Below, one piece after another: positions 3,991 to 58,668 of a DNA stretch of 64,000 nucleotides (its first letter is position 1; every line of letters begins with the position of its first letter). This DNA comes from Myxococcales bacterium (GTDB lineage: Bacteria; Myxococcota_A; UBA9042): contig SHZD01000002.1 of the NCBI GenBank assembly GCA_009692465.1, positions 1 through 64,000 on the forward strand, written 5' to 3'. The notes under the pieces were generated by a model. That model had not been told where the DNA came from. It worked only from the letters and a program-made list of their open reading frames with translations, and searched no databases. Position numbers and translations under genes: made by a program.

Positions 3991-4157
3991 AGTCCTTAGC
4001 TGTCCCCAAAGGATGGTTTTGGGGGCGCGGACTATCTAAGCGCAAGCGCATGTTGTCAAGGGGCGCGCGCACCCCATCGGGCGGTGCAACTGGCGGCAGC
4101 CGCAGGTTTTGCGGTACACTAATGCCCCAAGTTCGGGTGACGGGCAGCCACAAAGCC

Positions 4158-6479
4158 ATGATTTTGCTAAATAATAGCGATTGGACCCTTCGTCTGAGGG
4201 ATCTTACAGAATCGAATGGTTTTTGTTGGCGACCGCTGGCTGGTGGCCTTCGCCGCTCAGGGGTAGCGCTCGCGGCCAAGGGTGTTTGTGCTGCCCTTGC
4301 GGTCAGTGTCCTTGCTAGCACGGCCTGCGTCGGCGGCAGCAGTGACGGCTCCTCTGGACCCGCCATTGCCAGCGTGACCGACGCTGCGGTGGCCCGCTTT
4401 AACGTTGACGTCGGCAAGTCTGCCCCTAAAACCAGTAGCGATGCCGCTCAGGACAGCAGTGGCGGCAGCGCACCGACCGGCCAATCCGGCGACAGCGCAT
4501 CACCGCCGTCTGGCACCGTCGATAGCGGCGAGCAGGCCGACTCTGCGGTGGCAGCCAGTGCGGAGGGCGTCGATTCCAAGAGTCCAGATAGTTTGGCTAA
4601 TTCGCAGAACTGTGAAAAGGACAAGTTCTGCATCGACGCCAGCGACTGCCCGGTAACCCCGTGTACTCAGGGGCAATGCAAAGGTGGCTGCTGCATCGTG
4701 TCTCCCGTTGTCGACGGCAAGACTTGCGACGACAGCAACAAGTGCACCGCCACCGACACCTGCAAAGTCGGCGTGTGCACCGGCAAGGCCAAAAGCTGCG
4801 ACGACGGCAAGGACTGTACCGCCGACAGCTGCAACACGGTCAACGGCAAGTGCGTGAGCGTCATCGCCGACAAATCGTGTTTGATCGTCGGCAAGTGCGT
4901 GGCTCAAGGCGAGGTTAGCCAAGCGAGCGCCTGCAAAACTTGCGACCCCGTCAGCAGCACTGACAGTTGGACTGTTGCCGCCAATTGCTGCGCCGACGCC
5001 AGCGAGTGCCCGCCGGCCGGTGTGTGCGATACCCCTGTGTGCGACCCTGTCGCCCATACCTGCGGGTTCGAGAAGAAAGTCGGTTGCTGCATCCAAGACA
5101 GCGACTGCAGCGACGCCAATGCGTGCACCAAGGACAGTTGCGATGTGGCGCTTGGCGTGTGCAGCTACGCGGCGATCAGTTGCGTGGATCCCAACCCGTG
5201 TCAGGCCGCAACATGCGTGGAAGCGACCGGCGAATGCAAAGCGGTCACCAAGCCCGGCTGGTGTATGGTCGATGGCAGTTGCCACACCGAGGGCGCTACC
5301 AGTTCAGCGAACCCGTGCTTGGTTTGTAACTCGGCGAAATCAAATACGGAGTGGAAAACCGCTATCGGCACTGCTTGCAGCGACAGCAACCCGTGCACCT
5401 ACGGAGACAGCTGTCAGGTCGGCGGCAAGTGCGTCGGTTCACCCCAACAGGGTTGCTGTCAAAGCAACGCCGACTGCAAACCCACCGGCGATCCCTGTGC
5501 CGCCAACGTCTGCGATCTTGGGCAAGGCTTGTGCATTTCCAAGAGCTTAGCTGGGTGTTGCACTAGCGGTACCTGCTGCGACGCGGCCACTAATTCGGTC
5601 AAGCCGGCCAAAAGCACCTGTGGCGGAGGCGCGATCAGCGTCCAGTACCAGTGCAGTGGCCAAATTATACAAAGTCAAGAAATTTCGCCTGGTTGTAATG
5701 GGGCGAGCGCCACCGGTTGCTCCAGCCAGACCCAGTTCTTGGTCAGCGGGCCGTGGCAAAACGTACAGACCTGTCCCGCCAACACCCAGTGCGCGGCGGC
5801 GGGCAGCGGCCAAAAGCCGACTTGTGCCAGCACCCAACCCGCCGGTTCTTGTGCCAATTCGTGCGGGTCCAAGAGTATCACCGGCGTTTGTTATTGTGAC
5901 GCAATTTGCACCGGTGCCGGCGATTGTTGCAAGGATTATATGACGTTTTGTGGCTGCGCTAGTGGCGAATGTTGCGATGTCACCACCAAATTCCCAAAAA
6001 CGGCTGGAACGACCTGTGGCGCGGTCAAGACCCAGTTTCAGTGCAGCGGTAAGTTGGTGCAAAAGCGCACGGGCAACCCAACTTGCGACGGCAAGAACAT
6101 CTGCGCCACCGCCACAGCGAGTATCAAGTGGGGCAGCTATGGCACCACGCAAACCTGTGGATCGACGCAGAATTGCCACGCCGCGGCCGATGGTTCGTCC
6201 GCCAGTTGCGTGGCAATTCCGACTGGCACCTGCATGGGCCACTGTGGCACCAAGAGCACTGGATCGTGCTATTGCGACACGGCGTGCAAGGGCCTAGGCG
6301 ACTGCTGCGCTGACTTTGACAGCGTCGGCTGTGCCACAATGCAAACCTGCGGCGCCAAGGCCACCACCACCTGCAAAGGCAAGTGCGGCGGCCAGGGCAT
6401 TGGCCTGTGCTGGTGTGACTCGTTGTGCGAGTCTATCGGCGACTGCTGCCCTGACAGGGCCGTTTGCGCTTGCAACTAG
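4158..6479 (+). CDS. Cys-rich lipoprotein with EGF-like/EB-like repeats and three C-terminal somatomedin-B-like modules
   Basis: ORF 4050..6479; lipobox-like 'VSVLASTAC'; repeated 'CDD..KCTATDTC...C' units; three 'C..xCG......C.CD..C...GDCC.D....C' modules at the C-terminus. Confidence 0.75.
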   Translation: MILLNNSDWTLRLRDLTESNGFCWRPLAGGLRRSGVALAAKGVCAALAVSVLASTACVGGSSDGSSGPAIASVTDAAVARFNVDVGKSAPKTSSDAAQDSSGGSAPTGQSGDSASPPSGTVDSGEQADSAVAASAEGVDSKSPDSLANSQNCEKDKFCIDASDCPVTPCTQGQCKGGCCIVSPVVDGKTCDDSNKCTATDTCKVGVCTGKAKSCDDGKDCTADSCNTVNGKCVSVIADKSCLIVGKCVAQGEVSQASACKTCDPVSSTDSWTVAANCCADASECPPAGVCDTPVCDPVAHTCGFEKKVGCCIQDSDCSDANACTKDSCDVALGVCSYAAISCVDPNPCQAATCVEATGECKAVTKPGWCMVDGSCHTEGATSSANPCLVCNSAKSNTEWKTAIGTACSDSNPCTYGDSCQVGGKCVGSPQQGCCQSNADCKPTGDPCAANVCDLGQGLCISKSLAGCCTSGTCCDAATNSVKPAKSTCGGGAISVQYQCSGQIIQSQEISPGCNGASATGCSSQTQFLVSGPWQNVQTCPANTQCAAAGSGQKPTCASTQPAGSCANSCGSKSITGVCYCDAICTGAGDCCKDYMTFCGCASGECCDVTTKFPKTAGTTCGAVKTQFQCSGKLVQKRTGNPTCDGKNICATATASIKWGSYGTTQTCGSTQNCHAAADGSSASCVAIPTGTCMGHCGTKSTGSCYCDTACKGLGDCCADFDSVGCATMQTCGAKATTTCKGKCGGQGIGLCWCDSLCESIGDCCPDRAVCACN

Positions 6480-7648: not shown

Positions 7649-7805
7649 TACAGACCCGATCAAGTGGGATTTGCTCGGCGGCTCAGTGCTTGCTTGGTGG
7701 GTCGCGAGCCTGCGGCACTTATTCAGTGGCCTGCGGGTTGGCCTCAGGCCGCTCCGTTTTGTTTGGGAATTCTTTGAGGTTCGGCGTCAATTGCTCGGGT
7801 CTCTA
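7649..7805 (+). mobile_element. MITE-like element family D, copy 1
   Basis: TACAGACCCGATCAAG...TTGCTCGGGTCTCTA; near-identical to 52943-53099 in reverse. Confidence 0.8.
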
Positions 7806-7893
7806 GGTGGGTCGCAAGCTCGCGTCTTTACAGCCGACTCGCTGGTCTGCTCATTTCGCGGATCAATCGAGTTGTTCTTTTACACGCCCTTTG
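7804..7893 (+). mobile_element. Partial family B element (right half)
   Basis: 'ggtgggtcgcaagctcgcg...gccgactcg...gcggatcaatcgagttgttcttttacacgcccttt' matches the right half of family B at 32114-32253. Confidence 0.6.
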
Positions 7894-15035: not shown

Positions 15036-16409
15036 ATGGCGTTTTTCGAGCAATTTGCGGCGTGGATGCCTGAAGATTTTGCCGCTTGGCAACCAGCCAA
15101 ACGAGCATCCAACCGCTTTACCCCCGAGCGCAGTCGGGTGCGCGAGCGCCTCAAGTCGTTGGTCGAACAGGCGTTACTCCGTCAAAGTCTGCAGCGCGGT
15201 GACTTGGAACTGTGGGCCAGCAAAGCCGAGCCGCATTTTTTCAATGACCACGTAGTCGACCACGCCATCGCCCTTTTGGCGCGACCGCAGGCCTTTCGCG
15301 ATCGGCTGGAGGCGCTGAATTCTGCGGTATCCAGTGCTAATCCAGAGAAATTTCATGCGCATATTGGCGTGCGCGTCGATGTGGACGGCGTAGTCATCGA
15401 GCTGAGTGCGCCGGCCGGCGCCGCTTTTGAGCTGGAGGCCGCCCGCGCCGCCGTACACGACTGGTCGATGTGGGCGGAGTTATTGGGTTGGGCGCTGCCG
15501 GCCAGTGATGCGCGCGATGTCAGTGTGGCCCGTCGGTGGTCGGTGCAAGAGGCGCTTGACTGGGCCGACCCGATCGGTGATGTCGGGATGTGGGCGAGCC
15601 AAGCATTGCCCGCTCTGGCACAACTGCTTGAACAGACTGATAAAAACTCGAACACTCCGCCAAGCGCGGCGCTGCCAGTGCCTGCAGCCGCGGCGCTGCC
15701 GCCTGCCACGATTCAAGCTCCACCGCGCCAATGGCAGCCCTATCGGCCAACCGCCCCGGCCCCACCACGGCGGGCCCCGATCGAGCCGCGACCCAGTCTG
15801 ATCGAGCGCATCGTACCGTATATGCAAGCGCCGCCTGAGCCGCCGCCCCTGCACCACCACGACCAGCATGGGCACGGCCATGAACGGCGAGAGCCGCCGC
15901 GCGATCGCGGTGCTGAGGGCAATTGGCAGGGTTCGCCACCCGCTGGGCGCCACCGGGATACACAGTGGCGGCCCGACAGTCAGCGCCAGCCCGACCGGCC
16001 CGAGGCGCATGGGCCGCCAGATACGCGCGGTGGGCAGCGCTCAGTTGCTGATCCACGAATGGGCGACGGGCGCCCGCGGCCTGATTCCCGGTTGGGCGAC
16101 CCGGGCTCCGATGCCCGCGGCGGGCTTGCTGGAATCGATCAGCGTCGGCGTCACCCAGACGAGCACCGACCGCCTGATCGTGGCCGAGCGCCGCCGCGAA
16201 GTCACGGCGATCACCAGTCGAGTTCGCGGCCGCCTGCTGCCCCGCCGCCGCCGCAAGGCCCTCAGTCCGGTGCGCTAGTGGTGCTGACCGGTGGCTTGTT
16301 GGCCGGCAAAGAGGGCCAAGTCGTGGCCAATCTGGGTCGAACAATCAAAGTGCGCGTTGGCAAACTGGAATTCGAGCTGCCGGCCTATCAGGTTCAAGCC
16401 GCCGCCTAA
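15036..16409 (+). CDS. Hypothetical protein with Pro/Arg-rich central region and C-terminal KOW-like motif
   Basis: 'GALVVLTGGLLAGKEGQVVANLGRTIKVRVGKLEFELPAYQVQ' at the C-terminus. Confidence 0.65.
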   Translation: MAFFEQFAAWMPEDFAAWQPAKRASNRFTPERSRVRERLKSLVEQALLRQSLQRGDLELWASKAEPHFFNDHVVDHAIALLARPQAFRDRLEALNSAVSSANPEKFHAHIGVRVDVDGVVIELSAPAGAAFELEAARAAVHDWSMWAELLGWALPASDARDVSVARRWSVQEALDWADPIGDVGMWASQALPALAQLLEQTDKNSNTPPSAALPVPAAAALPPATIQAPPRQWQPYRPTAPAPPRRAPIEPRPSLIERIVPYMQAPPEPPPLHHHDQHGHGHERREPPRDRGAEGNWQGSPPAGRHRDTQWRPDSQRQPDRPEAHGPPDTRGGQRSVADPRMGDGRPRPDSRLGDPGSDARGGLAGIDQRRRHPDEHRPPDRGRAPPRSHGDHQSSSRPPAAPPPPQGPQSGALVVLTGGLLAGKEGQVVANLGRTIKVRVGKLEFELPAYQVQAAA

Positions 16410-16684
16410 GGGCCCGTGCAAAATTAAGTCGATTTTGAACCCCGGCCCCTTGCTTGCCTGCTGGGTCGCTAAAGAACTGTCCTCAACTAACTCGATCGAT
16501 CTGGGCACCACAGGAGCGGCGAGTCGGCCTTTGAGGACGCGAGCTTAGCGACCAACAAAGCCAGCAAACGGAATCAGTCCCACAATGACTTATTCTGGGA
16601 CAGTTCCTAACTCGCGGCCTTGCAATCCGGCTCGACGCTGCATTCCTATCCCGAAGCGATCGCGTCGTTCTTGCACGCGCCCCA
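16407..16684 (+). mobile_element. Family B element interrupted by a family C element
   Basis: TAAGGGCCCGTGCAAAATTAAGTCGATTTTG... aligns to 32114-32253; interrupted at 16470-16609. Confidence 0.75.
16470..16609 (-). mobile_element. MITE-like element family C, copy 1 (nested)
   Basis: TA-AAGAACTGTCC...GGACAGTTCC-TA; reverse complement of 38295-38434. Confidence 0.85.
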
Positions 16685-16710
16685 AGGCCAAGATGAGCGT
16701 AAATGCTCCA

Positions 16711-18084
16711 TTAAATCAAGCCAATCCGGACCAACGTCGCAATGGTGCTCCAGCCTAGGGCGAACACCAACGCCACCGCACCCACCCACAAAAACTGCCG
16801 CACCACTCGCCGGGTCGGCCACCACGGCGGGGTCGCAGCCGATGTCCATTGCGCCTGGCTGATCACTGGATCGGGATGCGTCGAATGGGCGGCGGCCATA
16901 TCCAGATCGGCGCGCTGGTCAGGGGTCAGGTAGGCGCGCGGATACATCATCGAAGGCTGACGGGCACTGGCTGGCGCAAAGGTTTCCGGTGCAGTTTGAC
17001 TATGTTGGGGCCGACGGGGCCGAGCTTGCGGGTGCTCTAGAGGGCTTTGCGCCACCACCGACAGCTGCGAAGGCTGGTACTCGTCGGCGCCCATTTTCGC
17101 CAACGGCGGGGTCGCAATCGCGTTTTGTGGCACCGAGCCCGGCGGCGCAGCTTGCAGCAGTTTGCGCACGTCTTCGGCGAGACGCGCGTTATCGTAACCA
17201 GGCGAAGTGGTGCGCAGCCAGCCTTCCAAATCGGCGGCCAGTAGCCCCATCGACTGATAGCGGGTCGCTTTGTTGCGCTCCAAAGCCATGTGAATGATCG
17301 CCGATAGTTCGGTAGACAGCCCGTCGGCCAGGTTATGCGCCTTGGTGATCGGATCTTCGCGCACGGCGCGCAACACCGCAAACGGCGAACCGGAGCCCAT
17401 CGCGCGAAACAGTGGCTTGCCGGTCACCATTTCCCACATGCACACGCCGAGGCTGAACACGTCGCTGCGGCCGTCGACCAGCTCGGCGCTGGCCTGCTCG
17501 GGGCTCATGTAGGCGTATTTGCCTTTGATGATGCCAGCCATCGTCTGCTGGATGCGGGCGGCGACCTTGGCGACGCCAAAGTCGATGATCTTGACCTCGC
17601 CGCCGCGCGCAATCAGCACGTTTTGTGGGCTGACATCGCGGTGGACAATGCCCAGCCGGGTGCCATTTTCGTCGAGCAGCTCGTGCGCGTGCTCCAAGCC
17701 GCGGGCAATGCCGGCGCAGACATAGGCGACCATCGTCGGCGACGCTCGCGCTCCGCGGTTTTCGCAGGTCGCCGCCAGCGTGCCCAAATCGACGCCGTCG
17801 ACGTACTCCATAATGAAAAAATAGGTGCCATCGTGGCAGCCGAGCTCAAAAGTCTGAGCGATATTGCTGTGATCAAAGCGCATCGCTAGGCGCGCTTCTT
17901 GAACCAACATCTCGACTGCGCTTTGGTCCTCGGTCAACTGGGCGTGCATGCGCTTGAGCGCCACCAACTTGTTGTCGCCGTGCGTCGTCGGCGCCTTGGC
18001 CAGATAAACCTCGGCCATGCCGCCGCGACCTAGGCGCCGCAGTAGCTCATAGGGTCCAAATTGTTGAGGAAATTCGTTGCGCAC
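16711..18084 (-). CDS. Serine/threonine protein kinase with C-terminal TM segment
   Basis: 'FGPYELLRRLGRGGMAEVYLAK...IVHRDVSPQNVLIARGGEVKIIDFGVAK...KYAYMSPEQ'. Confidence 0.95.
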   Translation of the reverse strand: MRNEFPQQFGPYELLRRLGRGGMAEVYLAKAPTTHGDNKLVALKRMHAQLTEDQSAVEMLVQEARLAMRFDHSNIAQTFELGCHDGTYFFIMEYVDGVDLGTLAATCENRGARASPTMVAYVCAGIARGLEHAHELLDENGTRLGIVHRDVSPQNVLIARGGEVKIIDFGVAKVAARIQQTMAGIIKGKYAYMSPEQASAELVDGRSDVFSLGVCMWEMVTGKPLFRAMGSGSPFAVLRAVREDPITKAHNLADGLSTELSAIIHMALERNKATRYQSMGLLAADLEGWLRTTSPGYDNARLAEDVRKLLQAAPPGSVPQNAIATPPLAKMGADEYQPSQLSVVAQSPLEHPQARPRRPQHSQTAPETFAPASARQPSMMYPRAYLTPDQRADLDMAAAHSTHPDPVISQAQWTSAATPPWWPTRRVVRQFLWVGAVALVFALGWSTIATLVRIGLI

Positions 18085-18156: not shown

Positions 18157-19098
18157 TTAGCATAAAAATTCAAGAAGTTCCACGTTGACCGCCTCTGGTT
18201 CTTCTTGCTGCAGCCAGTGGCCGGCGTCGGCAAAATAGCGCACTTCAAACGGCCCGCTGCACCAGTGTTGCGCTTCGGGTGCCAGAAAATCGCCCAACGC
18301 CGGATCCTTGCGACCCCACAGCGTCAGCACCGGACACGCGATCGGCCGCGCCAATGAGTCGGTCAGCGCCAAGAACTTGGGGATCGAGCGGTAATAGGCC
18401 AGCGCCGCTTGGGCAACTCCCGGCCGGGCGATACGCTCGCCGTAGACGGCAAAATCGGTGCGCGCAAAGGCCGAACGCTTGCCAGCGGCCCCCAAAAACG
18501 ATCGAGCCATGGCGGTCACGGGGTCTTTGGCAATCCAACGCTCGGTCAAGCCGGGAATCTGAAACATCACCATGTACCAAGACTTGAACAACTGCGACGG
18601 ATGGCGCCACAAGGACCGACGAAAAGCCAACGGGTGCGGGGCATTGAGAATGACCAACCGCTGCACAACCTGCGGATGCACAGCCGCCAGCGCCCACGCG
18701 ATGGCGCCACCCCAATCGTGCGCCACCACCATCGCCGACTCTGCGTGGCCACGCTCGCTTTGCAACACCTTGATAAGAAGCGCGATGTCCTCGGCAAGAG
18801 TGGCGATATCGTACCCGCCTTGGCGCGGGTCCGGCTTGTCACTGTCGCCATAACCGCGCAAGTCGGGTGCCACGGCCAAAAATCCGGCGTCGCCCAGCGC
18901 CCGCAATTGGTGCCGCCACGACCACCAAAACTCGGGAAAGCCGTGCAAAAACACCACCAGCTGCCCATTGATGGGACCGTGGCTGGCCACATGCAGACTC
19001 AGGTGCGGGCGAACCGTTAGCCGTCGCTGAGAAAATCCTTCAGTTTTAGGTAGTTGCAACCCTAACCACCACAGCCAGGCAACGGAATATGGGTGCAA
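18157..19098 (-). CDS. Alpha/beta hydrolase (epoxide hydrolase-like)
   Basis: 'VVFLHGFPEFWWSWRHQLRALGDAGFLAVAPDLRGYGDSDKP...VVAHDWGGAIAWALA'; start uncertain (overlaps upstream gene). Confidence 0.87.
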   Translation of the reverse strand: MHPYSVAWLWWLGLQLPKTEGFSQRRLTVRPHLSLHVASHGPINGQLVVFLHGFPEFWWSWRHQLRALGDAGFLAVAPDLRGYGDSDKPDPRQGGYDIATLAEDIALLIKVLQSERGHAESAMVVAHDWGGAIAWALAAVHPQVVQRLVILNAPHPLAFRRSLWRHPSQLFKSWYMVMFQIPGLTERWIAKDPVTAMARSFLGAAGKRSAFARTDFAVYGERIARPGVAQAALAYYRSIPKFLALTDSLARPIACPVLTLWGRKDPALGDFLAPEAQHWCSGPFEVRYFADAGHWLQQEEPEAVNVELLEFLC

Positions 19099-22000
19099 CT
19101 GCCGTTAAAGGTGTTGCAGAAGTCCTGGGTGCATGGGTTCTTGTCGTCGCATTCGACCGCGGACTTGCACACCGGCTTGGGGTTGCAGCCCGGAATTTTC
19201 TGGTGGGCGCACTTGCTCTGCAGCAAGTCGCAGAAGTCGACAGTGCACGAGTTAGCGTCATCGCAGTCGGTCTGCAACTTGCACTGTGGGTTGGGATTGC
19301 AGCCGGCAATGGGGGTGTAAATGCAGTTGCCGCTAAAGGTGTTGCAAGTGTCGAAGGTGCAACTGTTCTTGTCGTCGCACTCGGTGTTGACCTTGCATTG
19401 GGCGCCACAATTGCCGATTTTTTGGTAGACGCAGCCGACCAGCGGCAGGCACGCATCCACAGTGCAAGCGTCGTTGTCGTTGCAGGTTGCCACCTTGCCC
19501 GAGCACACGCCGTTGGCACAGGCGTCGCCGGTGGTGCAGGCGCTGTTATCGTCACAGCTACCGCCGCTCGCCGGTTTGACCCCGCACAGGCCTAGCACGC
19601 ACGCTGGGGTCAGGCACGCCATTGCGCTCGACTTGCACTCGCTATCGATTTTGCACTTGTTGCCACAGCTGGGCAGGTTGGTGAATTGGCACTTGCCGGT
19701 CAGGGTCACGCACACGTCCACGGTACAGGCGTCCGAATCCGTGCAGGCCACCGCGGGACCGCCGACGCACACCCCGACCTTGCAGGTGTCGCCCTGGGTG
19801 CACAAGTTGGGGTCGTCGCATTTGGCGCCGTCAACGACCACGCTGAACACGCACTTGGCGGTTTTGGCGTCGCAACTATCCTTGGTACACGGATTTTTGT
19901 CGTCACAGATCAACGCGACTCCAGCCTGGCAGGCGCCGCCCTTGCACACATCGCCGCTGGTACACAGGCTGCCATCGTCACAAACCGAGCCACCATTGTT
20001 GAATTGGCAGATGCCAGCCGCGCACTTGTCGACGGTGCACACATTGGCGTCGTTGCAGTCGGTGGTGGCCTTGCAGGTGGTTCCACAGCCGGCGATCGCG
20101 GTGTGACTGCAAGCGCCGGAAGCGGGATCGCACTTGTCGGCGGTGCAGTCGTTGTTATCATTGCAGTTCTTGGCGGTGCCGCCGCATTGGCCCTTGGCGC
20201 AGATATCGGCGCTGGTGCACAAGCTTTTGTCGTCACAGGCGCTGCCGTTGTTGCCCAAATTGTGGGTGCACTTGCCGTTTTCCTTGTTGCACAAATCCAC
20301 CGTGCACGGGTTGGTGTCGTCGCACCCGACTTTGGTGCCGCCACACACGCCAGCGCTGCAGACGTCGCTGCCGGTACACAGATCGCCGTCGTTGCAAGCC
20401 GCGCCGGTCAGTGCCTTGTTTTGACACAGCTTAGCCACGCAGGCGGGTTGAAAACAGACGTTCTTGGCGCCGCAATCCGCGTCAGTGGCACAGTTGGCTC
20501 CGCATTTGGGAATGCCGGTGAAAGCGCACTTGCCCGTGACCACGGAACAAGCATCGACCGTGCATGGATCGTTGTCAAAACAGGCAATTGCGGTGCCAGC
20601 GCAGCTGGCTGCCTTGCAGGTATCCCCTTGGGTGCAGCCATTGCCGTCGCTACACCCAGCGCCGTCCTGGGCGGCCAGCGCCGCGCACTTGCCGGTCGTT
20701 TTGTTGCAACTGTCGATCGTGCAAGGGTTTTTATCGTCGCAGACCACGGCTTTGCCGACGCCGCACAGGCCTTGCGCGCACACTTCGCCGACCGTGCAGC
20801 CGTTGCCATCGTCGCACAGGCCACCACTGGCGTTGGCAACCGCACAGGTGCCCACGTTGCATGTGTTCTTCGTGCATGGATTTTTGTCGTCGCAATCGCC
20901 GTCCGCTTTGCAGTCACTGCCACAGCCCGCAATCGGCGTCGCCACACACTTGCCGGTGCCCTTGTCGCAACTGTCTGCGGTGCAAGCATTGTTGTCGTTG
21001 CAGGTCACTGCGCCGGTGCCGCTGCACATGCCCAGCTTGCAGGCGTCGCCCAGCGAACACAGGTTGCCGTCGTCACACGGAGTATTGGTGGCCAGTGGGC
21101 TGGCGAGACAGGCGCCGTTGCCCTTGTCGCACGTGTCGAGCGTGCACGGATTCTTGTCGTCGCAAACCACTGTTTTACCTTTGCATACACCTGCTTGCGC
21201 TTCGACGGCACAGGCGTCACCACTGGTGCAGGCGTTGCCATCGCTGCATGCCCCGCCCGCTTGTGGTTTCTGCTGGCACAGGCCTTGTACGCAACTGTCG
21301 GTGGTGCATGGATTCTTGTCGCTGCAGTCGGCGGCAGTCTTGCAAGCGTCGCCGCAGTTGGGGATGTCCTTGAAACTACACTTGCCGCCCGCACAGGCAT
21401 CGAGCGTACACGGGTTGGCGTCCGTGCATGGCAAGGCCGAGCCCGCGCATTTTCCGGTGACGCAGCTGTCTTTTTCGGTGCAGGCGTCTTTGTCCGTGCA
21501 AGCCGCGCCATTGGCCAGCGCGATGGCGGCGCATTTGCCGGTAGTTTTGTCGCAACTGTCCGTGGTGCAAGGATTGCCGTCGTCGCATACCGCGGCAGCG
21601 CCCGCCACGCATACGCCGACTTTGCACTGATCCGAGAGTGTGCATAAGTTAGCGTCTTCGCAAGCAGAACCGTCCGCGGCATTGGCGACTACACACTTGC
21701 CGGTGGCCTTGACGCAGCTGTCGATGGTGCACGGATTGCCGTCGTTGCAGATCTGGGCGCTACCAGCGACGCATTTGCCCGCCGCACAGCTGTCGGCCGC
21801 AGTGCACAAGTCGCCGTCGTCGCACGGGCCGTCTTTGGCGGCGTTGACGCACTTGCTTTTTTCGCAACTATCAGCTGTGCAAGGGTTTTTGTCGTCACAG
21901 GGGCTGGCGTCTTTGCAGTTGCCACCGCAGCCGGCGATCGGGTCCGAAGTGCAAGCGCCAGTTTGCAGAGCGCAGGTGTCTAACGTGCAAGCGTCTTTGT

Positions 22001-23525
22001 CGTCACAGCTTTTCGCCGCCGATGCGCACACCCCCTTGCTGCAGGCGTCTTTGTCCGTGCAGGGATTGTTGTCGCTGCACGGGCCGGCCTCGGCAAACAC
22101 GCTGGTGCATTTTGCGGTCGCGCTAGCGCAACTATCGGTGGTGCACGGATTGCCGTCGTCGCAACTGAGCGCGCCGCCAGCGCACTTGCCGCCAGAGCAA
22201 GTGTCCTTGTCCGAGCAGGCATTGGCGTCGTCGCAGGCCTTGCCGTCGTCGTTCTTGCTGGCGCATTTGCCGGTGGCCGGGTCGCAACTGTCCACGGTGC
22301 ACCCATTGGTGTCGTCACACACCAGCGCCGCGCCAAAGCAGCCACCGCCCACGCAGGCGTCCTTGTCGGTGCACAGGTTGTCGTCACTGCAGGTGGCAGT
22401 GTCCAGCGGGACAGGGGTGCAAAAACCGGCGGCGCACTGGTCTTTGGTACACGGATTCTTGTCGTCGCAGTCGGCGCTAGCCTTGCACTTGCTGCCACAA
22501 CCGGCGATGGCAGTGGCCTTGCACTTGCCAGACGCCGCGTCGCAAGAATCTTCGGTACAGGGGTCCCCATCGGCGCAAACCGTTGCCGACCCTGAGCATT
22601 TGCCAGTTTTGCACGTTTCGCCGGTGGTGCAGCCGTTGTTGTCGTTGCACACATCGCCGTCGGCGGTCGCACTAACCGAGCAAGCGCCGGTTTTGGCCTC
22701 ACAGGCATCGGTTGTGCACGGATCGCCATCGTCGCACGGCACAATGACGCCGACGCAAATGCCGGTCTTGCAGGCCTCGCCGCCAGTACACAAGTTGCCG
22801 TCGTCACAGGCGGTGCCATCGGCTTGCGGTTCACTGCTGCAAGCACCGGTGGAAGCGTTGCAGCTGTCACTGGTGCAGCCATTCTTGTCGTCACAGTCGG
22901 CGTCGGTCGCGCAGCCGGTCTTGGCGCAACCAGCAACCGGGCTGAACACGCAAGCGTTGCTGGTGGCATCGCAGGCATCGCTGGTACACAGATCGCCGTC
23001 GTCGCACACTTTGGCTTTGCCTACGCACTGACCTGCAGCGCAGGCTCCACCGACTGTGCAATTGGCGCTGGCGGTGCAGGCCGCGCCGTCAGCAGCCACA
23101 CTTACTGAACAAATGCCGGCGACGCAGACTGCGACACTGCAGGAGCCCACGGCCAATTGGCAGTCGTCGTCCGTCGCGCACTGCGGCGCTGAGTCCGCTC
23201 CGCCATCCGCTGGCGCTAAATCGGTCGGCCCGCCGTCTGCGGTACCGTCACCACCCACGGCGCTATCGCCAACTGCTGGCACATCGGCAGTGGGCAGGCC
23301 ATCGCCAGCAGTGCCGTCGGGGCTCTTGGCGGTGCTGTCGCCGATGGCATCCACGCTGGCAGCGCCGACGTCGGTGCCGGTTGCACCTGAGGCCTGCGCG
23401 GACCCGGCCACAGCGGCAGTGTCCTCACCGCAGCCGACCAGCGCCGCAGGTCCACCACCTGCCGCCGCCCACGCTACTGCCAACCATGCGAACTGCCGAC
23501 GCGAACCATGCGAAACCTGCATCAC
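19062..23525 (-). CDS. Very large Cys-rich tandem-repeat lipoprotein (about 1,487 aa)
   Basis: Signal/lipobox-like 'GGGPAALVGCGED', then many 'CDD.NPCT.DSCD..TGKC....C' repeats. Confidence 0.9.
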   Translation of the reverse strand: MMQVSHGSRRQFAWLAVAWAAAGGGPAALVGCGEDTAAVAGSAQASGATGTDVGAASVDAIGDSTAKSPDGTAGDGLPTADVPAVGDSAVGGDGTADGGPTDLAPADGGADSAPQCATDDDCQLAVGSCSVAVCVAGICSVSVAADGAACTASANCTVGGACAAGQCVGKAKVCDDGDLCTSDACDATSNACVFSPVAGCAKTGCATDADCDDKNGCTSDSCNASTGACSSEPQADGTACDDGNLCTGGEACKTGICVGVIVPCDDGDPCTTDACEAKTGACSVSATADGDVCNDNNGCTTGETCKTGKCSGSATVCADGDPCTEDSCDAASGKCKATAIAGCGSKCKASADCDDKNPCTKDQCAAGFCTPVPLDTATCSDDNLCTDKDACVGGGCFGAALVCDDTNGCTVDSCDPATGKCASKNDDGKACDDANACSDKDTCSGGKCAGGALSCDDGNPCTTDSCASATAKCTSVFAEAGPCSDNNPCTDKDACSKGVCASAAKSCDDKDACTLDTCALQTGACTSDPIAGCGGNCKDASPCDDKNPCTADSCEKSKCVNAAKDGPCDDGDLCTAADSCAAGKCVAGSAQICNDGNPCTIDSCVKATGKCVVANAADGSACEDANLCTLSDQCKVGVCVAGAAAVCDDGNPCTTDSCDKTTGKCAAIALANGAACTDKDACTEKDSCVTGKCAGSALPCTDANPCTLDACAGGKCSFKDIPNCGDACKTAADCSDKNPCTTDSCVQGLCQQKPQAGGACSDGNACTSGDACAVEAQAGVCKGKTVVCDDKNPCTLDTCDKGNGACLASPLATNTPCDDGNLCSLGDACKLGMCSGTGAVTCNDNNACTADSCDKGTGKCVATPIAGCGSDCKADGDCDDKNPCTKNTCNVGTCAVANASGGLCDDGNGCTVGEVCAQGLCGVGKAVVCDDKNPCTIDSCNKTTGKCAALAAQDGAGCSDGNGCTQGDTCKAASCAGTAIACFDNDPCTVDACSVVTGKCAFTGIPKCGANCATDADCGAKNVCFQPACVAKLCQNKALTGAACNDGDLCTGSDVCSAGVCGGTKVGCDDTNPCTVDLCNKENGKCTHNLGNNGSACDDKSLCTSADICAKGQCGGTAKNCNDNNDCTADKCDPASGACSHTAIAGCGTTCKATTDCNDANVCTVDKCAAGICQFNNGGSVCDDGSLCTSGDVCKGGACQAGVALICDDKNPCTKDSCDAKTAKCVFSVVVDGAKCDDPNLCTQGDTCKVGVCVGGPAVACTDSDACTVDVCVTLTGKCQFTNLPSCGNKCKIDSECKSSAMACLTPACVLGLCGVKPASGGSCDDNSACTTGDACANGVCSGKVATCNDNDACTVDACLPLVGCVYQKIGNCGAQCKVNTECDDKNSCTFDTCNTFSGNCIYTPIAGCNPNPQCKLQTDCDDANSCTVDFCDLLQSKCAHQKIPGCNPKPVCKSAVECDDKNPCTQDFCNTFNGSCTHIPLPGCGG

Positions 23526-32053: not shown

Positions 32054-32113
32054 GCTCCAGCGCTTTCAAGGTCGGATCGGTTGAGCACCCTAAAGTGTCG
32101 CCCAGCCCGCAAT

Positions 32114-32253
32114 TAGAGCCAGTGCAAAATCAAGTCGATTTTGCTCCCCGGCCCATTGCTTGTTTGGTGGGTCGCTAACTCGCGGCTTTGCAAGCCGCCA
32201 GTACGCCTCGTTCCAATCGCGGATCGATCGAGTTATTTTTTCACGAGCCCTTT
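32114..32253 (+). mobile_element. MITE-like element family B, uninterrupted copy
   Basis: TAGAGCCAGTGCAAAATCAAGTCGATTTTG...GATCGATCGAGTTATTTTTTCACGAGCCC. Confidence 0.75.
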
Positions 32254-33720: not shown

Positions 33721-34596
33721 ATGTCCAACGGCAAACCAGCGTCAGCCGGCCTTGAGCCACCCGTGCGAGCCATCGTCGGTTTGGGCAATCCCGGCAAGGC
33801 CTACGCAGCCACGCGTCACAACGTCGGCTTTATGGCGATCGAACTCCTGGCTGCGCGCCATGGAGCGAGCTGGAACGCGAAATTCAACGGGTTGTTTGGC
33901 CGTTGCCAAGTCGTCAGCACTCCAACTGGCGGCGCTACTGGCATTGAGGCCCAGACCTCCAGCCGCGATCGAACGGTGACCACCAGTACCGGCGACCACC
34001 GTACCGATGTCGTGCTGCTGCAGCCGCAGACATTTATGAATTTGAGCGGCCACCCGACCCAACAGTTGGCGGCCTTTTTCGGCTACAAGGCCGAAGAATT
34101 GCTGATTATTCATGACGATTTGGACCTGCCGTTTGGCAAAGTGCAAATCAAAGTGGGCGGCGGCCACGGTGGCCACAACGGCTTGCGGTCGTTGGTCGCG
34201 CAACTGGGGAGCAATGCGTTTGTGCGGGTGCGGATCGGCATCGGTCGACCCACTACGGCCGATGACAGCCCCAGTCGCGATACCGGCAGGGGCGGCGATT
34301 CTGGCAGGGGCGGCGATTCTGGCAGGGGCGGCGATTCTGGCAGGGGCGGCGATTCTGGCAGGGGCGGCGATTCTGGCAGGGGCGGCGATTCTGGCAGGGG
34401 CGGCGACGCCGCAGTGACCCAGTGGGTGCTTTCGCCGTTTAGCCTCGACCAACGCATCGCCTTGCCGGATGTCCTCCAGCGCGCGGTTGCTGCGATCGAG
34501 GCGGTGCTTCGCAGCGGCGCCCGCGCCGCGAGTAATAGCCACAACGGCAATGCTAGCCACACCGGCAGCGGTGGCACCAATCGCGCGAGTTCCTGA
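33721..34596 (+). CDS. pth: Peptidyl-tRNA hydrolase with internal (DSGRGG)n insertion
   Basis: 'AIVGLGNPGKAYAATRHNVGFMAIELLA...LLQPQTFMNLSG...LLIIHDDLDLPFGKVQIKVGGGHGGHNGLRSL...VRIGIGRP'. Confidence 0.95.
   Translation: MSNGKPASAGLEPPVRAIVGLGNPGKAYAATRHNVGFMAIELLAARHGASWNAKFNGLFGRCQVVSTPTGGATGIEAQTSSRDRTVTTSTGDHRTDVVLLQPQTFMNLSGHPTQQLAAFFGYKAEELLIIHDDLDLPFGKVQIKVGGGHGGHNGLRSLVAQLGSNAFVRVRIGIGRPTTADDSPSRDTGRGGDSGRGGDSGRGGDSGRGGDSGRGGDSGRGGDSGRGGDAAVTQWVLSPFSLDQRIALPDVLQRAVAAIEAVLRSGARAASNSHNGNASHTGSGGTNRASS
34281..34405 (+). repeat. 18 bp in-frame tandem repeat in pth, about 7 copies
   Basis: (gattctggcaggggcggc)n encoding DSGRGG. Confidence 0.95.
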
Positions 34597-36338: not shown

Positions 36339-36700
36339 TAGGCTCTGCGCAAAATCTTATCGATTTCGCACTTCGGCCCACGGATTGCACTTCGGCCCAC
36401 GGATTGCTTGGTGGGTCGCAGACTTGCGGCCTAGGAGCGTGTCGGAGTATTCCGACTCGCTCCTAGCGCCGTCTGGCTAGACGGCGGCAACTGTCCCAAA
36501 CTGCACGGATTCACTCCGGGCAGTTCTTGGACAGTTGAGAATATCTGAGAAGCTAGGAGACTGTCGGATCGTAATAGATTCATTGTGTATAACTGGATAG
36601 ACATTCTATAAACGATTGATTCCCGACAGGCTCCTAGCAAGCCGACTCGGCGCTCCGTTCTTTTTGCGGATTGATCGAGTCATTCTTGCACCTGCTCCTA
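36339..36700 (+). mobile_element. Family B element interrupted by family A copy 3
   Basis: TAGGCTCTGCGCAAAATC...GTGGGTCGCAGACTTGCGGC | A | GCAAGCCGACTCGGCGCTC...CATTCTTGCACCTGCTCCTA. Confidence 0.75.
36431..36637 (-). mobile_element. MITE-like element family A, copy 3 (nested)
   Basis: CTAGGAGCGTGTCGG...CCGACAGGCTCCTAG, 207 bp, reverse orientation. Confidence 0.88.
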
Positions 36701-38262: not shown

Positions 38263-38294
38263 TTTGGGGCCTGGCTCAGAACTGTCGGCGCTGT

Positions 38295-38434
38295 TAGGAA
38301 CTGTCCCAGAATAAGTCATTGTGGGACTGGTTCCGTTTGCTTGCTTTGTTGGTCGCTAAGCTCGCGTCCCCAAAGGCCGACTCGCCGCTCCTGTGTTGCC
38401 CAGATCGATCGAGTTATTTGAGGACAGCTCCTTA
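38295..38434 (+). mobile_element. MITE-like element family C, copy 2
   Basis: TAGGAACTGTCCCAG...GAGGACAGCTCCTTA. Confidence 0.82.
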
Positions 38435-38635
38435 GAGGGTGTTTATATTCATTGCGGAAGCGAGCGGAAACAGGCGCCCGCAAGGCGAGGCGGAGGCACT
38501 CTGACGACTGAGGCGCACTTGTGGTGCGTCGCAAGGAGGAAGAGGGCTGACAACAAAGCATGGCGGGGTCGATGAGTCCAGCGAACTCATCGACGGGTTA
38601 CGCGCCGCAGGCGTTTGAAGATAAACACCCTCTTA
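38433..38635. mobile_element. MITE-like element family E
   Basis: TAGAGGGTGTTTATATTCA...TGAAGATAAACACCCTCTTA terminal inverted repeats; abuts family C at a shared TA. Confidence 0.75.
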
Positions 38636-42846: not shown

Positions 42847-44133
42847 CTAGTGGCCCATTAGCGATTGGCACCAGGCAAGGTTTGCTTGAGCCAGACGCAG
42901 GCTTTCGCCGCGCTGGATCGCCTGCGCAAAAGCCGGCGCCGCTTGGTCACAGCGGCCCTCCCGCGCCCACAACACGCCCGCCACAAAGCTAGCTGGATAG
43001 GTCGGATCCGCCGCCACCATGGTCTGGATCAGCTCCAGCTTGCGCTCGACCCGCAGGCCGGCGTGGGCCTCAATGCGAAAACGCAGCAGCAGCGCTTGCA
43101 GGTCGGTGGCAAGGTGCGGAGCTTGCCGCACCCGCACGGCGAACTGCAAAAAGCGCGACTGAGCGAGCGCTTGCACCACCAGTTGGGCCGCCACAGTCAA
43201 GCCCTGCCCCTGTCCTTGCCCCTGTGAGTGCGCAGCAAGCCCAGAGTCCGCCAACAGCTTGATCAAGCCCGGCGCCAGCGCCTGCAGGGCAGCTGCCTGC
43301 GGATCCGCCATCCCATCACGAACTTGCACTTGCCGTAGCTGAGCGCCTGCGACCACTTGGCCAAAAATGTGAGCGACGTCGCGCCCCCAACGCACGGCCA
43401 TGGCCTGCACAGCTTGAACACCATGCAGTTCAGCGATGGTGCGCACCGTCTCTTCAATTTGACCTAGAATCTGCCGCGCTTGGCTGTCGTGTTGGACCTG
43501 TACCGTACCCATTTGCGCTTCGAGCGCCAGCCACTGGGCGACGTTCTTGCGCAAGCCAGCTTCTTGGCCGCGGGCTTGCTCGGTCTGCCGGCCGGCGTCA
43601 GCGGCGAGCAGTCGATCATCGCGCCGCACGATTTCATCCAGTTCGCGCTCGTCACTGTGCCAAAAGGTCAGCTGCAGTTGCGGCTGTAGCTCCCGTTTGA
43701 CCCCTGGTGCCACCGCGATCGCCAGCGCGCAAGTCGCCACCAACAGGGCCAATGTCGTCGCCACCAATCCGCGCGGAGGGATCAAGGCCGGCTCAATCAG
43801 ACCGTCGCTTGCGGCAGTTTGGGCACCGTCCGCTGGCGCTGCGTCTGCTGATTGCGCCCTTGCGGCGGCCGGCGGTTCCACTGGTCCAGCCGCAGTTCCA
43901 GTCTCAGCTCCAGCCGCAGTTCCAGTCCCAGCTCCAGTCTCGGCTCCAGTCTCGGCTCCAGTCTCAGCTCCAGTCCCAGCTCCAGTCTCGGCTCCAGTCT
44001 CGGCTCCAGTCTCGGCTCCAGTCTCAGCTCCAGTCTCAGCTCCAGTCCCAGCTTCAGCCACAGATTCACTTGCAGGTTCAGCCACAGGCGTCTGCGGCAA
44101 TTCGGGCTCTGGCGTCATCGGGTCGTCGGACAT
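42847..44133 (-). CDS. Single-pass membrane protein with (TGAE)n tandem region and helical C-terminal domain
   Basis: 'MSDDPMTPEPELPQTP...GTGAETGAETGAETGAETGAG...LVATTLALLVATCALAIAVAPG'. Confidence 0.65.
   Translation of the reverse strand: MSDDPMTPEPELPQTPVAEPASESVAEAGTGAETGAETGAETGAETGAETGAGTGAETGAETGAETGAGTGTAAGAETGTAAGPVEPPAAARAQSADAAPADGAQTAASDGLIEPALIPPRGLVATTLALLVATCALAIAVAPGVKRELQPQLQLTFWHSDERELDEIVRRDDRLLAADAGRQTEQARGQEAGLRKNVAQWLALEAQMGTVQVQHDSQARQILGQIEETVRTIAELHGVQAVQAMAVRWGRDVAHIFGQVVAGAQLRQVQVRDGMADPQAAALQALAPGLIKLLADSGLAAHSQGQGQGQGLTVAAQLVVQALAQSRFLQFAVRVRQAPHLATDLQALLLRFRIEAHAGLRVERKLELIQTMVAADPTYPASFVAGVLWAREGRCDQAAPAFAQAIQRGESLRLAQANLAWCQSLMGH
43893..44065. repeat. 12 bp-based tandem repeat encoding TGAE/TGAG
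   Basis: Repeated (gctccagtctcg/cagctccagtcc) units. Confidence 0.9.
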
Positions 44134-52845: not shown

Positions 52846-52942
52846 AACTTGCGGTTCGATGGTTCCACTCCCACTGCGTCGCCAGCCGTGCCGGACGCGA
52901 TGGCCATGCTATACCGAACTGCGGTGGGCCAACACCAGTGGC

Positions 52943-53099
52943 TAGAGACCCGACCAATTAACGCCGAACCTCAAAGAATTTCCAAACAAAACGGAGCGGC
53001 CTGACGCCAACCCGCAGGCCATTGAATAAGTGCCGCCGGCTCGCGACCCACAAAGCAAGCACTAAGACGCCGAGCAAATCTTATTTGATCGGCTCTCTA
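52943..53099 (-). mobile_element. MITE-like element family D, copy 2
   Basis: Reverse complement TAGAGAGCCGATCAAATAAGATTTGCTCGGCG...GGTTCGGCGTTAATTGGTCGGGTCTCTA, 157 bp. Confidence 0.85.
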
Positions 53100-56921: not shown

Positions 56922-58532
56922 ATGCTTTTCGCTCCCCAACGCCCCCTGCTGACGACGACGCGCCGAGCCGCTCGGCTGCTGGCGTTGCTCGTGCTGTTGC
57001 CGGTGACCACCCTTTTGGTCGGCACGCTGCCGGGCAACGGCGTGATCACCAGCGCGTACGCGGCCGACGAAGACAAGCCAGCGCTGGCCGTCGTCCACTT
57101 CGTCAAACGCGGCGACGCCGGCATGTTGAGCGTGCAACGCATCGAAGAATACCTGCGGCAGATGCTCGACGCCGGCGGTGCGGTCAAGATGTTGCCGGCC
57201 AAAGTCGTCGAACTGGGAAAGCCGCTGACGGGACCGGTTCGCCCGGCCGCCGCGGCCAATCTACCGGTGTCGCCTCAGGCCAAAGCTATTGAAAAAGCAG
57301 ATAAACTTGTCGCTGCAGCTCGCGATATCGTCGCCGAGGGCGAGGCGCTGGCCGATGGCATCAAGCTTTTGGCGGCGGCTGTGGAGCGGTATGAGGCCAA
57401 CTTTGTCGAGTTGGCTGATTTCTCTAAGTTAGTAGATGCGTACGCGCTAAACGCCCAGGCGTTGCTGATGCAAGGCGACACCAAAGGCGCCGCTGAGTGG
57501 GTAGCCCGCGCTTTGGCGATTCAGCCGACTTTTGTGGTCGATGGGCGCAAGCAAAACAAGGACCTCAAGGCCGTAGTGGACAAATCCCGCGACGGGTTGG
57601 AAGCCAAGCCGCGCACGACCATTGCCGTCGAATCCACCCAACCCGATTCGGAGGTTTACGTCGACGGCGTCAAGATTGGCACCGCTCCGGCCACCGCCAG
57701 CGATCTGCTTGCCGGCGTTCATTTCGTTCAGGTGCGCAAGGCTGGAGCATCGCCGTGGGGCCAACAGCTACTCGCCAAAGGTAAGCCTTTGCAAACAAAG
57801 GCTATACTTCAAATGCAGGTGGCACCAGAAAACGAGATCGCCATCTCAGTGAGCCCAGACGACATCAAGGAGTTTGCCAATAAGGGCAACTTTGGCGAGA
57901 AGATCTTTAAGAATTCTGCTGCGTTGTTCGCTCGGCAAATCGCGGCGACTCACATTTTATTTGGCCTGGTCAACCGGCGCCCTAGCACCCTAGAACTACA
58001 CCTTTTCGTGTTTTCCACCAAGACCAAGAAAACCTGCAGCGTTTCGCCGATTGAGTACGCAGCCAATCTCAACAACTTGCAGATGCAGACACTGGACGCT
58101 GAAGGCAAGGTGCGTATCGCCGTCCTCAACTGCGCCACCGATGTCAGCGGCGTACCCGCCATTTATGCCAACGCTCCCCAGCCGAAAGATGAACCGGTAG
58201 CGCCGGACATCGTGCCGACCCCGCCCGATGCCGAGCCCAAGGCCGATGTCACGGACGACCCCAAACCGGAGCCCAAGCCGGAGCCGAAACCGCAGCCCAA
58301 GCCGGAACCGCGGCGCGCGGATGTGCTCAAGAAAGTTGAAAAAGACGACCCTTACAAGGACTTACTGAAGGATTCCAATGCTGACGCCACCGATAAGCCG
58401 TTCTATACCACTTGGTGGTTTTGGACAGCCGTCGGCGTGGTGGCCGTCGGTGGTGGCGGTGCGGGCGCCTACGCGGCGACTCGCGGTGGCAATGTGGTGA
58501 CCGGGTATGGTGTCAAGGTGACAGTGCCCTAG
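56922..58532 (+). CDS. PEGA-like domain protein with Pro/Lys/Glu-rich linker and C-terminal TM
   Basis: 'VESTQPDSEVYVDGVKIGTAPATASDLLAGVHFVQVRKAG'; 'PKPEPKPEPKPQPKPEPR'; C-terminal TM. Confidence 0.75.
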   Translation: MLFAPQRPLLTTTRRAARLLALLVLLPVTTLLVGTLPGNGVITSAYAADEDKPALAVVHFVKRGDAGMLSVQRIEEYLRQMLDAGGAVKMLPAKVVELGKPLTGPVRPAAAANLPVSPQAKAIEKADKLVAAARDIVAEGEALADGIKLLAAAVERYEANFVELADFSKLVDAYALNAQALLMQGDTKGAAEWVARALAIQPTFVVDGRKQNKDLKAVVDKSRDGLEAKPRTTIAVESTQPDSEVYVDGVKIGTAPATASDLLAGVHFVQVRKAGASPWGQQLLAKGKPLQTKAILQMQVAPENEIAISVSPDDIKEFANKGNFGEKIFKNSAALFARQIAATHILFGLVNRRPSTLELHLFVFSTKTKKTCSVSPIEYAANLNNLQMQTLDAEGKVRIAVLNCATDVSGVPAIYANAPQPKDEPVAPDIVPTPPDAEPKADVTDDPKPEPKPEPKPQPKPEPRRADVLKKVEKDDPYKDLLKDSNADATDKPFYTTWWFWTAVGVVAVGGGGAGAYAATRGGNVVTGYGVKVTVP

Positions 58533-58668
58533 AGAGCCGATCAAATTAGATTTGCTCGGCGTCTCCTTGCTTGTTTCGTGGGTCGCGAGCGTGCGCCCGA
58601 GGCTTGCCGCCGCTTCGGTTTTGTTCGGGAATTTATTGAGTGTCGGCGATAGTTGGTCGCGTCTGCGA
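58530..58668 (+). mobile_element. Family D element, diverged copy 3
   Basis: TAGAGAGCCGATCAAATTAGATTTGCTCGGCG...GTGTCGGCGATAGTTGGTCGCGTCTGCGA; right terminus degenerate. Confidence 0.65.

What the first reader, a model, noticed from the sequence alone, without database searches (positions are those of the whole stretch)
16407..16684. Nested insertion with visible TA target: family C inside family B
The uninterrupted B copy reads 'ggtgggtcgcTAactcgcggctttgcaa' (about 32174-32200). The 16407 copy reads 'ctgggtcgcTA-AAGAACTGTCC...GGACAGTTCC-TAactcgcggccttgcaa'. The join matches a TA duplication around a 136 bp insert (16472-16607), so the second copy serves as an in-window empty site.
Basis: seen in the sequence. 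Interest (0 to 1): 0.68.

Follow-up and report, generated by a model that had tools for sequence, protein, structure and literature searches.

The report
Jumping DNA piece inside its relative
A 135-base transposase-less jumping DNA element has landed inside a related 135-base element and duplicated three bases (TAA) of its target; this is a clean, multiply supported case of an ordinary process, in an uncultured bacterium carrying at least about 180 copies of each element.

Summary
The nested insertion is real. Removing 16473-16610 restores a 135-bp element of "family B", as in the intact copy at 32116-32250. Two corrections follow.

(1) The duplication is three bases (TAA, class TNA), not TA, and the insert is 135 bp. 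In 86 genomic C copies the middle base of the flanking TNA agrees in 74 (55 expected). In 35 B copies it agrees in 31 (16 expected).

(2) B and C are not unrelated. Both consensuses are 135 bp and align without gaps at 73/135 once B is reversed (shuffle maximum 57). C therefore sits in its own relative, in opposite orientation.

The orthologous site in genome G004 carries a B-type element without C. Three other congeners lack both elements. The genome holds at least 179 C ends and at least 184 B cores.

Most likely these are non-autonomous MITEs moved in trans by an IS5/IS1031-type transposase. TNA duplication is that group's signature. A complete IS5-family element with TTA duplications exists in a related genus. 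A sister MITE in G002 interrupts an IS5 transposase gene with TTA duplications. The transposase for C and B themselves was not found.

The conserved terminal hairpin has compensatory changes between subfamilies. This is unexplained but not decisive.

The parts
16407..16409 (+). TAA: stop codon of the upstream ORF (15036-16409) and left TNA target duplication of the host B element
   Evidence: TNA duplications of B established on 35 copies
16410..16472 (+). left 63 bp of the interrupted B element (GGGCCCGTGCAAAATTAAGTCGATTTTG...GGGTCGCTAA)
   Evidence: 92% to B copy L055 over 63 bp; 86% to 32115-32178
16470..16472 (+). left copy of the TAA target duplication of C
16473..16607 (+). C element, 135 bp, terminal repeats AGAACTGTCC / GGACAGTTCC (family consensus GGAACTGTCC), opposite orientation to the host B element
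   Evidence: 94-98% to about 40 best genomic copies; 86 copies with both ends, 83 of them exactly 135 bp
16577..16601 (+). C terminal hairpin GTCCCACAAT-GACTT-ATTCTGGGAC (one C-C mismatch in this copy)
   Evidence: compensatory changes between the C, B and G002 subfamilies
16608..16610 (+). right copy of the TAA target duplication of C
16611..16682 (+). right 72 bp of the interrupted B element, ending ...CACGCGCCC
   Evidence: 81% to B copy L054 over 75 bp
16683..16685 (+). CAA: right target duplication of the host B element, apparently decayed from TAA
   Evidence: two of 35 B copies show the TAA/CAA pair
32116..32250 (+). uninterrupted B element (135 bp), flanked by TTA (32113-32115) and TTT (32251-32253); paralogous empty site
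38297..38431 (-). second C copy, TTA on both sides (38294-38296, 38432-38434)
38435..38631 (.). element D (197 bp, GAGGGTGTTTAT...ATAAACACCCTC ends, TTA on both sides), sharing one TTA with the C copy; same ends as a complete IS5-family element in a related genus (L158)

Best explanation
The finding is a nested transposition. A 135-bp MITE without a gene (C) inserted into the TAA in the core of a related 135-bp MITE (B). B itself had earlier inserted at the TAA stop codon of the upstream gene. Shown here: the boundaries, the TNA duplication, the paralogous and orthologous C-free sites, the high copy number, and the common ancestry of B and C. Inferred: both are moved in trans by an IS5-family (IS1031-subgroup-like) DDE transposase that makes a 3-bp staggered cut at TNA. 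The cognate transposase gene is missing from this assembly or lost.
For: Both flanks match B and, with C and one TAA removed, give exactly 135 bp. TNA duplication: middle base agrees in 74/86 C copies (mean 55 in shuffles, 0 of 10,000 reach it) and in 31/35 B copies (mean 16). Orthologous gene pair in G004: B-type element without C; G002, G003 and G005 have neither. At least 179 C ends and at least 184 B cores. B and C consensuses share 73/135 ungapped positions with B reversed; shuffle mean 35, maximum 57. In G002 a sister MITE interrupts an IS5_3/DUF4096 transposase gene with TTA on both sides, and joining the flanks continues the reading ...SKDYEQ. In G019 a complete DUF4096 element has TTA|GAGGGTGTTTACAT...ATGTAAACACCCTC|TTA, the ends of element D, which abuts a C copy in this window. 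Published: the IS1031 group prefers 5'-TNA-3' and makes an exclusive 3-bp repeat; ISLrh of that group has the terminal repeat GAACCTGTCTAGTATCT, resembling GGAACTGTCC (PMC12016507).
Against: No DUF4096 transposase occurs in this assembly, and no long element with GGAACTGTCC ends was found in it or in 22 relatives, so the mobilising enzyme for C and B is not shown. The assembly is a 294-contig, 92% complete genome. The base left of the C-side TNA is C in 69/86 copies with no matching G on the right, an asymmetry that a simple symmetric model does not predict.
Confidence: 0.82

Rival explanations
1. The insert is a TA-duplicating element of the IS630/mariner kind, as 'TA target' suggests, 136 bp long.
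For: TA flanks both sides of this copy and of most copies.
Against: Copies with TTA/TTA (7) and TCA/TCA (1) do not fit a 136-bp insert between two TA, and the middle base covaries between the two sides. B shows the same with TTA/TTA 14, TAA/TAA 11, TGA/TGA 1. With TNA the two terminal repeats become exactly symmetric.
Confidence: 0.06
2. The nest arose by recombination between the B and C cores, which share GGTCGCTAA, not by transposition.
For: C carries a related core (GTTGGTCGCTAAGCTCGCG on the reverse strand), and the junction falls in the shared GTCGCTAA of B.
Against: The inserted piece is a complete C with both termini and a duplicated TAA. Homologous exchange through the core would leave chimeric half elements. 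83 of 86 analysed C copies, mostly in unrelated flanks, have the same 135-bp limits.
Confidence: 0.04
3. B and C are maintained as a functional structured element (for example an RNA processing or transcription-end signal), and their spread reflects use by the host as much as transposition.
For: The terminal hairpin keeps a 9-10 bp stem in four subfamilies through changes on both sides, e.g. C-G in 86/86 C copies against A-T in 36/36 B copies. The 16.4 kb and 38.3 kb copies lie just beyond gene ends.
Against: Presence and absence at orthologous sites and many unrelated flanks show mobility. Compensatory changes can come from hairpin-templated repair without selection. Site location relative to reading frames was only weakly different from controls.
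Confidence: 0.12

Closest known systems
Bacterial MITEs such as ERIC and Correia (review PMC10969869)
   Same: Short, inverted terminal repeats, tens to hundreds of dispersed copies; the review cites 711 ERIC copies in Photorhabdus luminescens.
   Different: No sequence relation was tested; the duplication here is TNA (3 bp); the subfamilies share a body but have different terminal decamers.
IS1031 subgroup of IS5 (e.g. ISLrh, PMC12016507)
   Same: TNA target with an exclusive 3-bp duplication; ISLrh terminal repeat GAACCTGTC... resembles GGAACTGTCC.
   Different: C and B encode nothing, and no transposase gene with their termini was found.
IS5-family element at L158 786-2058 (genome G019) and element D of this window
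   Same: Same taxonomic family of bacteria, TTA duplication, DUF4096 transposase; D has the same ends and abuts C.
   Different: Its terminal repeat GAGGGTGTTTACAT differs from those of C and B, so it is the likely partner of D and not shown for C.

Membership tests
MITE (non-autonomous miniature inverted-repeat element) | short, no transposase gene | tested here: met
   135 bp in 83 of 86 copies; at that length it cannot encode a transposase
MITE (non-autonomous miniature inverted-repeat element) | terminal inverted repeats | tested here: met
   GGAACTGTCC / GGACAGTTCC, exact in 62 and 73 of 86 copies respectively
MITE (non-autonomous miniature inverted-repeat element) | target site duplication | tested here: met
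   TNA, middle base concordant 74/86
MITE (non-autonomous miniature inverted-repeat element) | multiple dispersed copies and polymorphic presence between relatives | tested here: met
   at least 179 ends; C absent at the orthologous site in four congeners
MITE (non-autonomous miniature inverted-repeat element) | identified autonomous partner with the same termini (helpful, not strictly required) | tested here: inconclusive
   none found, but the assembly is incomplete
IS5 family, IS1031 subgroup | 3-bp TNA duplication | tested here: met
   published rule in PMC12016507
IS5 family, IS1031 subgroup | encodes DUF4096 + DDE_Tnp_1 transposase | tested here: not met
   C and B carry no gene, so they are not IS5 members themselves; such transposases occur in congeners without these termini
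IS5 family, IS1031 subgroup | terminal repeats recognised by an IS1031-group transposase | not testable with these tools
   needs a transposition assay
IS630 / mariner type | TA duplication | tested here: not met
   three bases are duplicated and TTA/TTA copies occur

The most novel reading that the evidence does not exclude
The elements form a superfamily that keeps one body and one hairpin-ended architecture while the outer ~10 bp of both ends change together (GGAACTGTCC, GGGCCCGTG, GGGACTGGAA; a mixed-end form in G004). That would mean the ends are rewritten in concert, for example by hairpin-templated repair, allowing one MITE lineage to switch between transposases, with the paired structure itself under selection.
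Probability: 0.2. Interest if true: 0.55.

Novelty: new member of a known kind. Interest (0 to 1): 0.34.

Why it matters
The locus gives an order of events (B into a stop codon, then C into B). It has both a paralogous and an orthologous C-free site, which fixes the element's exact boundaries and duplication. It exposes an abundant MITE superfamily in a group of uncultured bacteria; searches of the open-access paper library did not bring up an earlier description. The shared body with changing ends makes it possible to ask how MITEs change transposase partners.

Tried and rejected
The DDE_Tnp_1 hits in the own genome (L151-L153) were checked: L151 is a fragment of an IS5_2-type transposase and L152 an ISAs1-type fragment joined to other sequence; no inverted TNA-flanked ends were found in L151 or L152. 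A pattern search for other GGAACTGTCC ends in the genus found mainly more 135-bp copies and a few lone ends. A search in 22 relatives found only G004 copies plus four isolated matches without a partner end. I first read the transposase in G002 as flanked by MITEs acting as its ends; it is instead an IS interrupted by one MITE and abutted by another. A test of whether C sites avoid reading frames was inconclusive: 54% against 66% of controls lie in stop-free stretches of at least 150 codons. Rfam gave only a tRNA. Paper searches found no description of this family.

Full report
Observation. The sequence around 16407-16684 is as quoted. Reading the junctions base by base gives GGGTCGC-TAA-[AGAACTGTCC ... 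GGACAGTTCC]-TAA-CTCGCGG, with the bracket at 16473-16607. The other copy at 32116-32250 reads GGGTCGC-TAA-CTCGCGG. The flanks are B: left 92% over 63 bp and right 81% over 75 bp to the best B copies. Taking out C and one TAA leaves 63 + 72 = 135 bp, exactly the length of B.

Copy number and exact limits. The own genome (5.8 Mb, 294 contigs) holds at least 179 C 3' ends and at least 184 B cores at up to 3 mismatches, against 0 for the reversed control patterns. I fetched stretches around about 100 C copies. In 86 copies both ends could be read; 83 of these are exactly 135 bp between GGAACTGTCC and GGACAGTTCC. The three bases outside are TNA on both sides in most copies. The middle base agrees in 74 of 86 (shuffled mean 55, none of 10,000 as high), including seven TTA/TTA and one TCA/TCA. 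B behaves the same: 31 of 35 agree (mean 16). The duplication is therefore three bases, TNA, and at this locus TAA. The last element base is C whatever precedes the left TNA, so the duplication does not extend to four bases.

Empty sites. The gene pair on either side (an ORF without a Pfam match at 15036-16409 and a protein-kinase gene at 16711-18084 on the minus strand) is found in same-genus genomes. In G002, G003 and G005 the two genes nearly touch: neither B nor C is present. In G004 a B-type element lies at the same place, in the same orientation, without C; its left arm is shorter than in this genome. G004 appears to be the GenBank MAG SXRM01 ('Proteobacteria bacterium' F1-140-MAGs058), inferred from a matching contig length. 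The left duplication of B is the TAA stop codon itself, so B's insertion kept the stop. The second C copy in the window (38297-38431) is also absent from the corresponding place in five congeners; G004 has a B-type element there.

B and C are relatives. Both consensuses are 135 bp. With B reversed they share 73 of 135 positions without a gap (shuffle mean 35, maximum 57). They share AAATAACTCGATCGATC near one end, TTAGCGACC.AC.AAGCAAGCAA in the middle, and a terminal hairpin with loop GACTT. Sister forms occur in G002 (GGGACTGG.. ends) and G004. The hairpin stem keeps pairing while its sequence changes on both sides: for instance C-G in 86/86 C copies and A-T in 36/36 B copies at one pair; C-G, G-C and A-T in C, B and G002 at another. 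One pair of the stem is unpaired in most C copies (26/86 paired). This could be selection on structure or hairpin-templated repair; the data do not separate them.

Mechanism. TNA with an exclusive 3-bp repeat is the published habit of the IS1031 subgroup of IS5, and one member, ISLrh, ends in GAACCTGTCTAGTATCT (PMC12016507). In the same bacterial family, G019 carries a complete DUF4096-transposase element with TTA|GAGGGTGTTTACAT...ATGTAAACACCCTC|TTA. Its ends are those of element D, which abuts the second C copy here. In G002 a sister of B/C interrupts an IS5_3 transposase gene; TTA flanks it on both sides and joining the flanks continues the reading frame (SKD-YEQ). So IS5-type TNA transposition has operated in this lineage and this superfamily moves with TNA duplications. 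The enzyme that moves C and B was not found: no DUF4096 gene is in this assembly, and no long element with GGAACTGTCC ends was seen in it or in 22 relatives.

Nesting is not unique. A second C (L010, contig C16) lies at the same TAA of a B-like core, judged from its left flank only. Eighteen of 86 C copies abut what looks like the end of another element across a single shared TNA; in the window about 0.6% of TNA sites have such an end on their left side (ends matched with up to two mismatches). Tandem copies at 138-bp spacing (135 + 3) occur here and in G002. C abuts D on its left nine times and on its right once, which I cannot explain by random orientation.

Verdict. Confirmed nested insertion, with the duplication corrected to TAA (TNA) and the two families joined into one. 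It is a new MITE superfamily of a known kind; the mechanism is established knowledge applied by analogy, and the cognate transposase remains to be found.

Noticed in passing
window 36385-36697: A second nest: 'family A' (about 207 bp, CTAG on both sides, ends GAGCSTGTCGG) lies inside a B-like element; flanks ...GTGGGTCGCAGACTTGCGGC | CAAGCCGACTCGG... match B on both sides, with CTAG where the B consensus has TTTG.
   Followed up: partly
window 38294-38634: C and D in tandem: TTA-C-TTA-D-TTA; D (197 bp) has the termini of a complete IS5-family element found in a related genus (L158).
   Followed up: partly
C copies genome-wide: The base before the left TNA is C in 69/86 copies with no mirror preference on the right, and D abuts C on the left nine times against once on the right: an unexplained orientation bias.
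   Followed up: partly
L148 (G002) 541-681 and 1709-1849: Two inverted sister MITEs at an IS5 transposase gene, one interrupting it with TTA duplication and one abutting its 5' side; superficially looks like a composite transposon.
   Followed up: yes
G002 contig C6 47022-47355: Three MITE copies in tandem at 138-bp spacing, consistent with repeated insertion into the neighbouring TNA.
   Followed up: no
window 19062-23525 (-) and 4050-6479 (+): Long ORFs made of many cysteine-rich repeats coded by divergent DNA repeats (families D2-D9).
   Followed up: no
window 7649-7806, 52942-53099, 58530-58595: A further repeat family sharing the TTGCTTG.TTGGTGGGTCGC motif with B but with other ends.
   Followed up: no
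window 43837-44112 and 34259-34424: Short tandem arrays of 12-bp and 18-bp units within ORFs.
   Followed up: no
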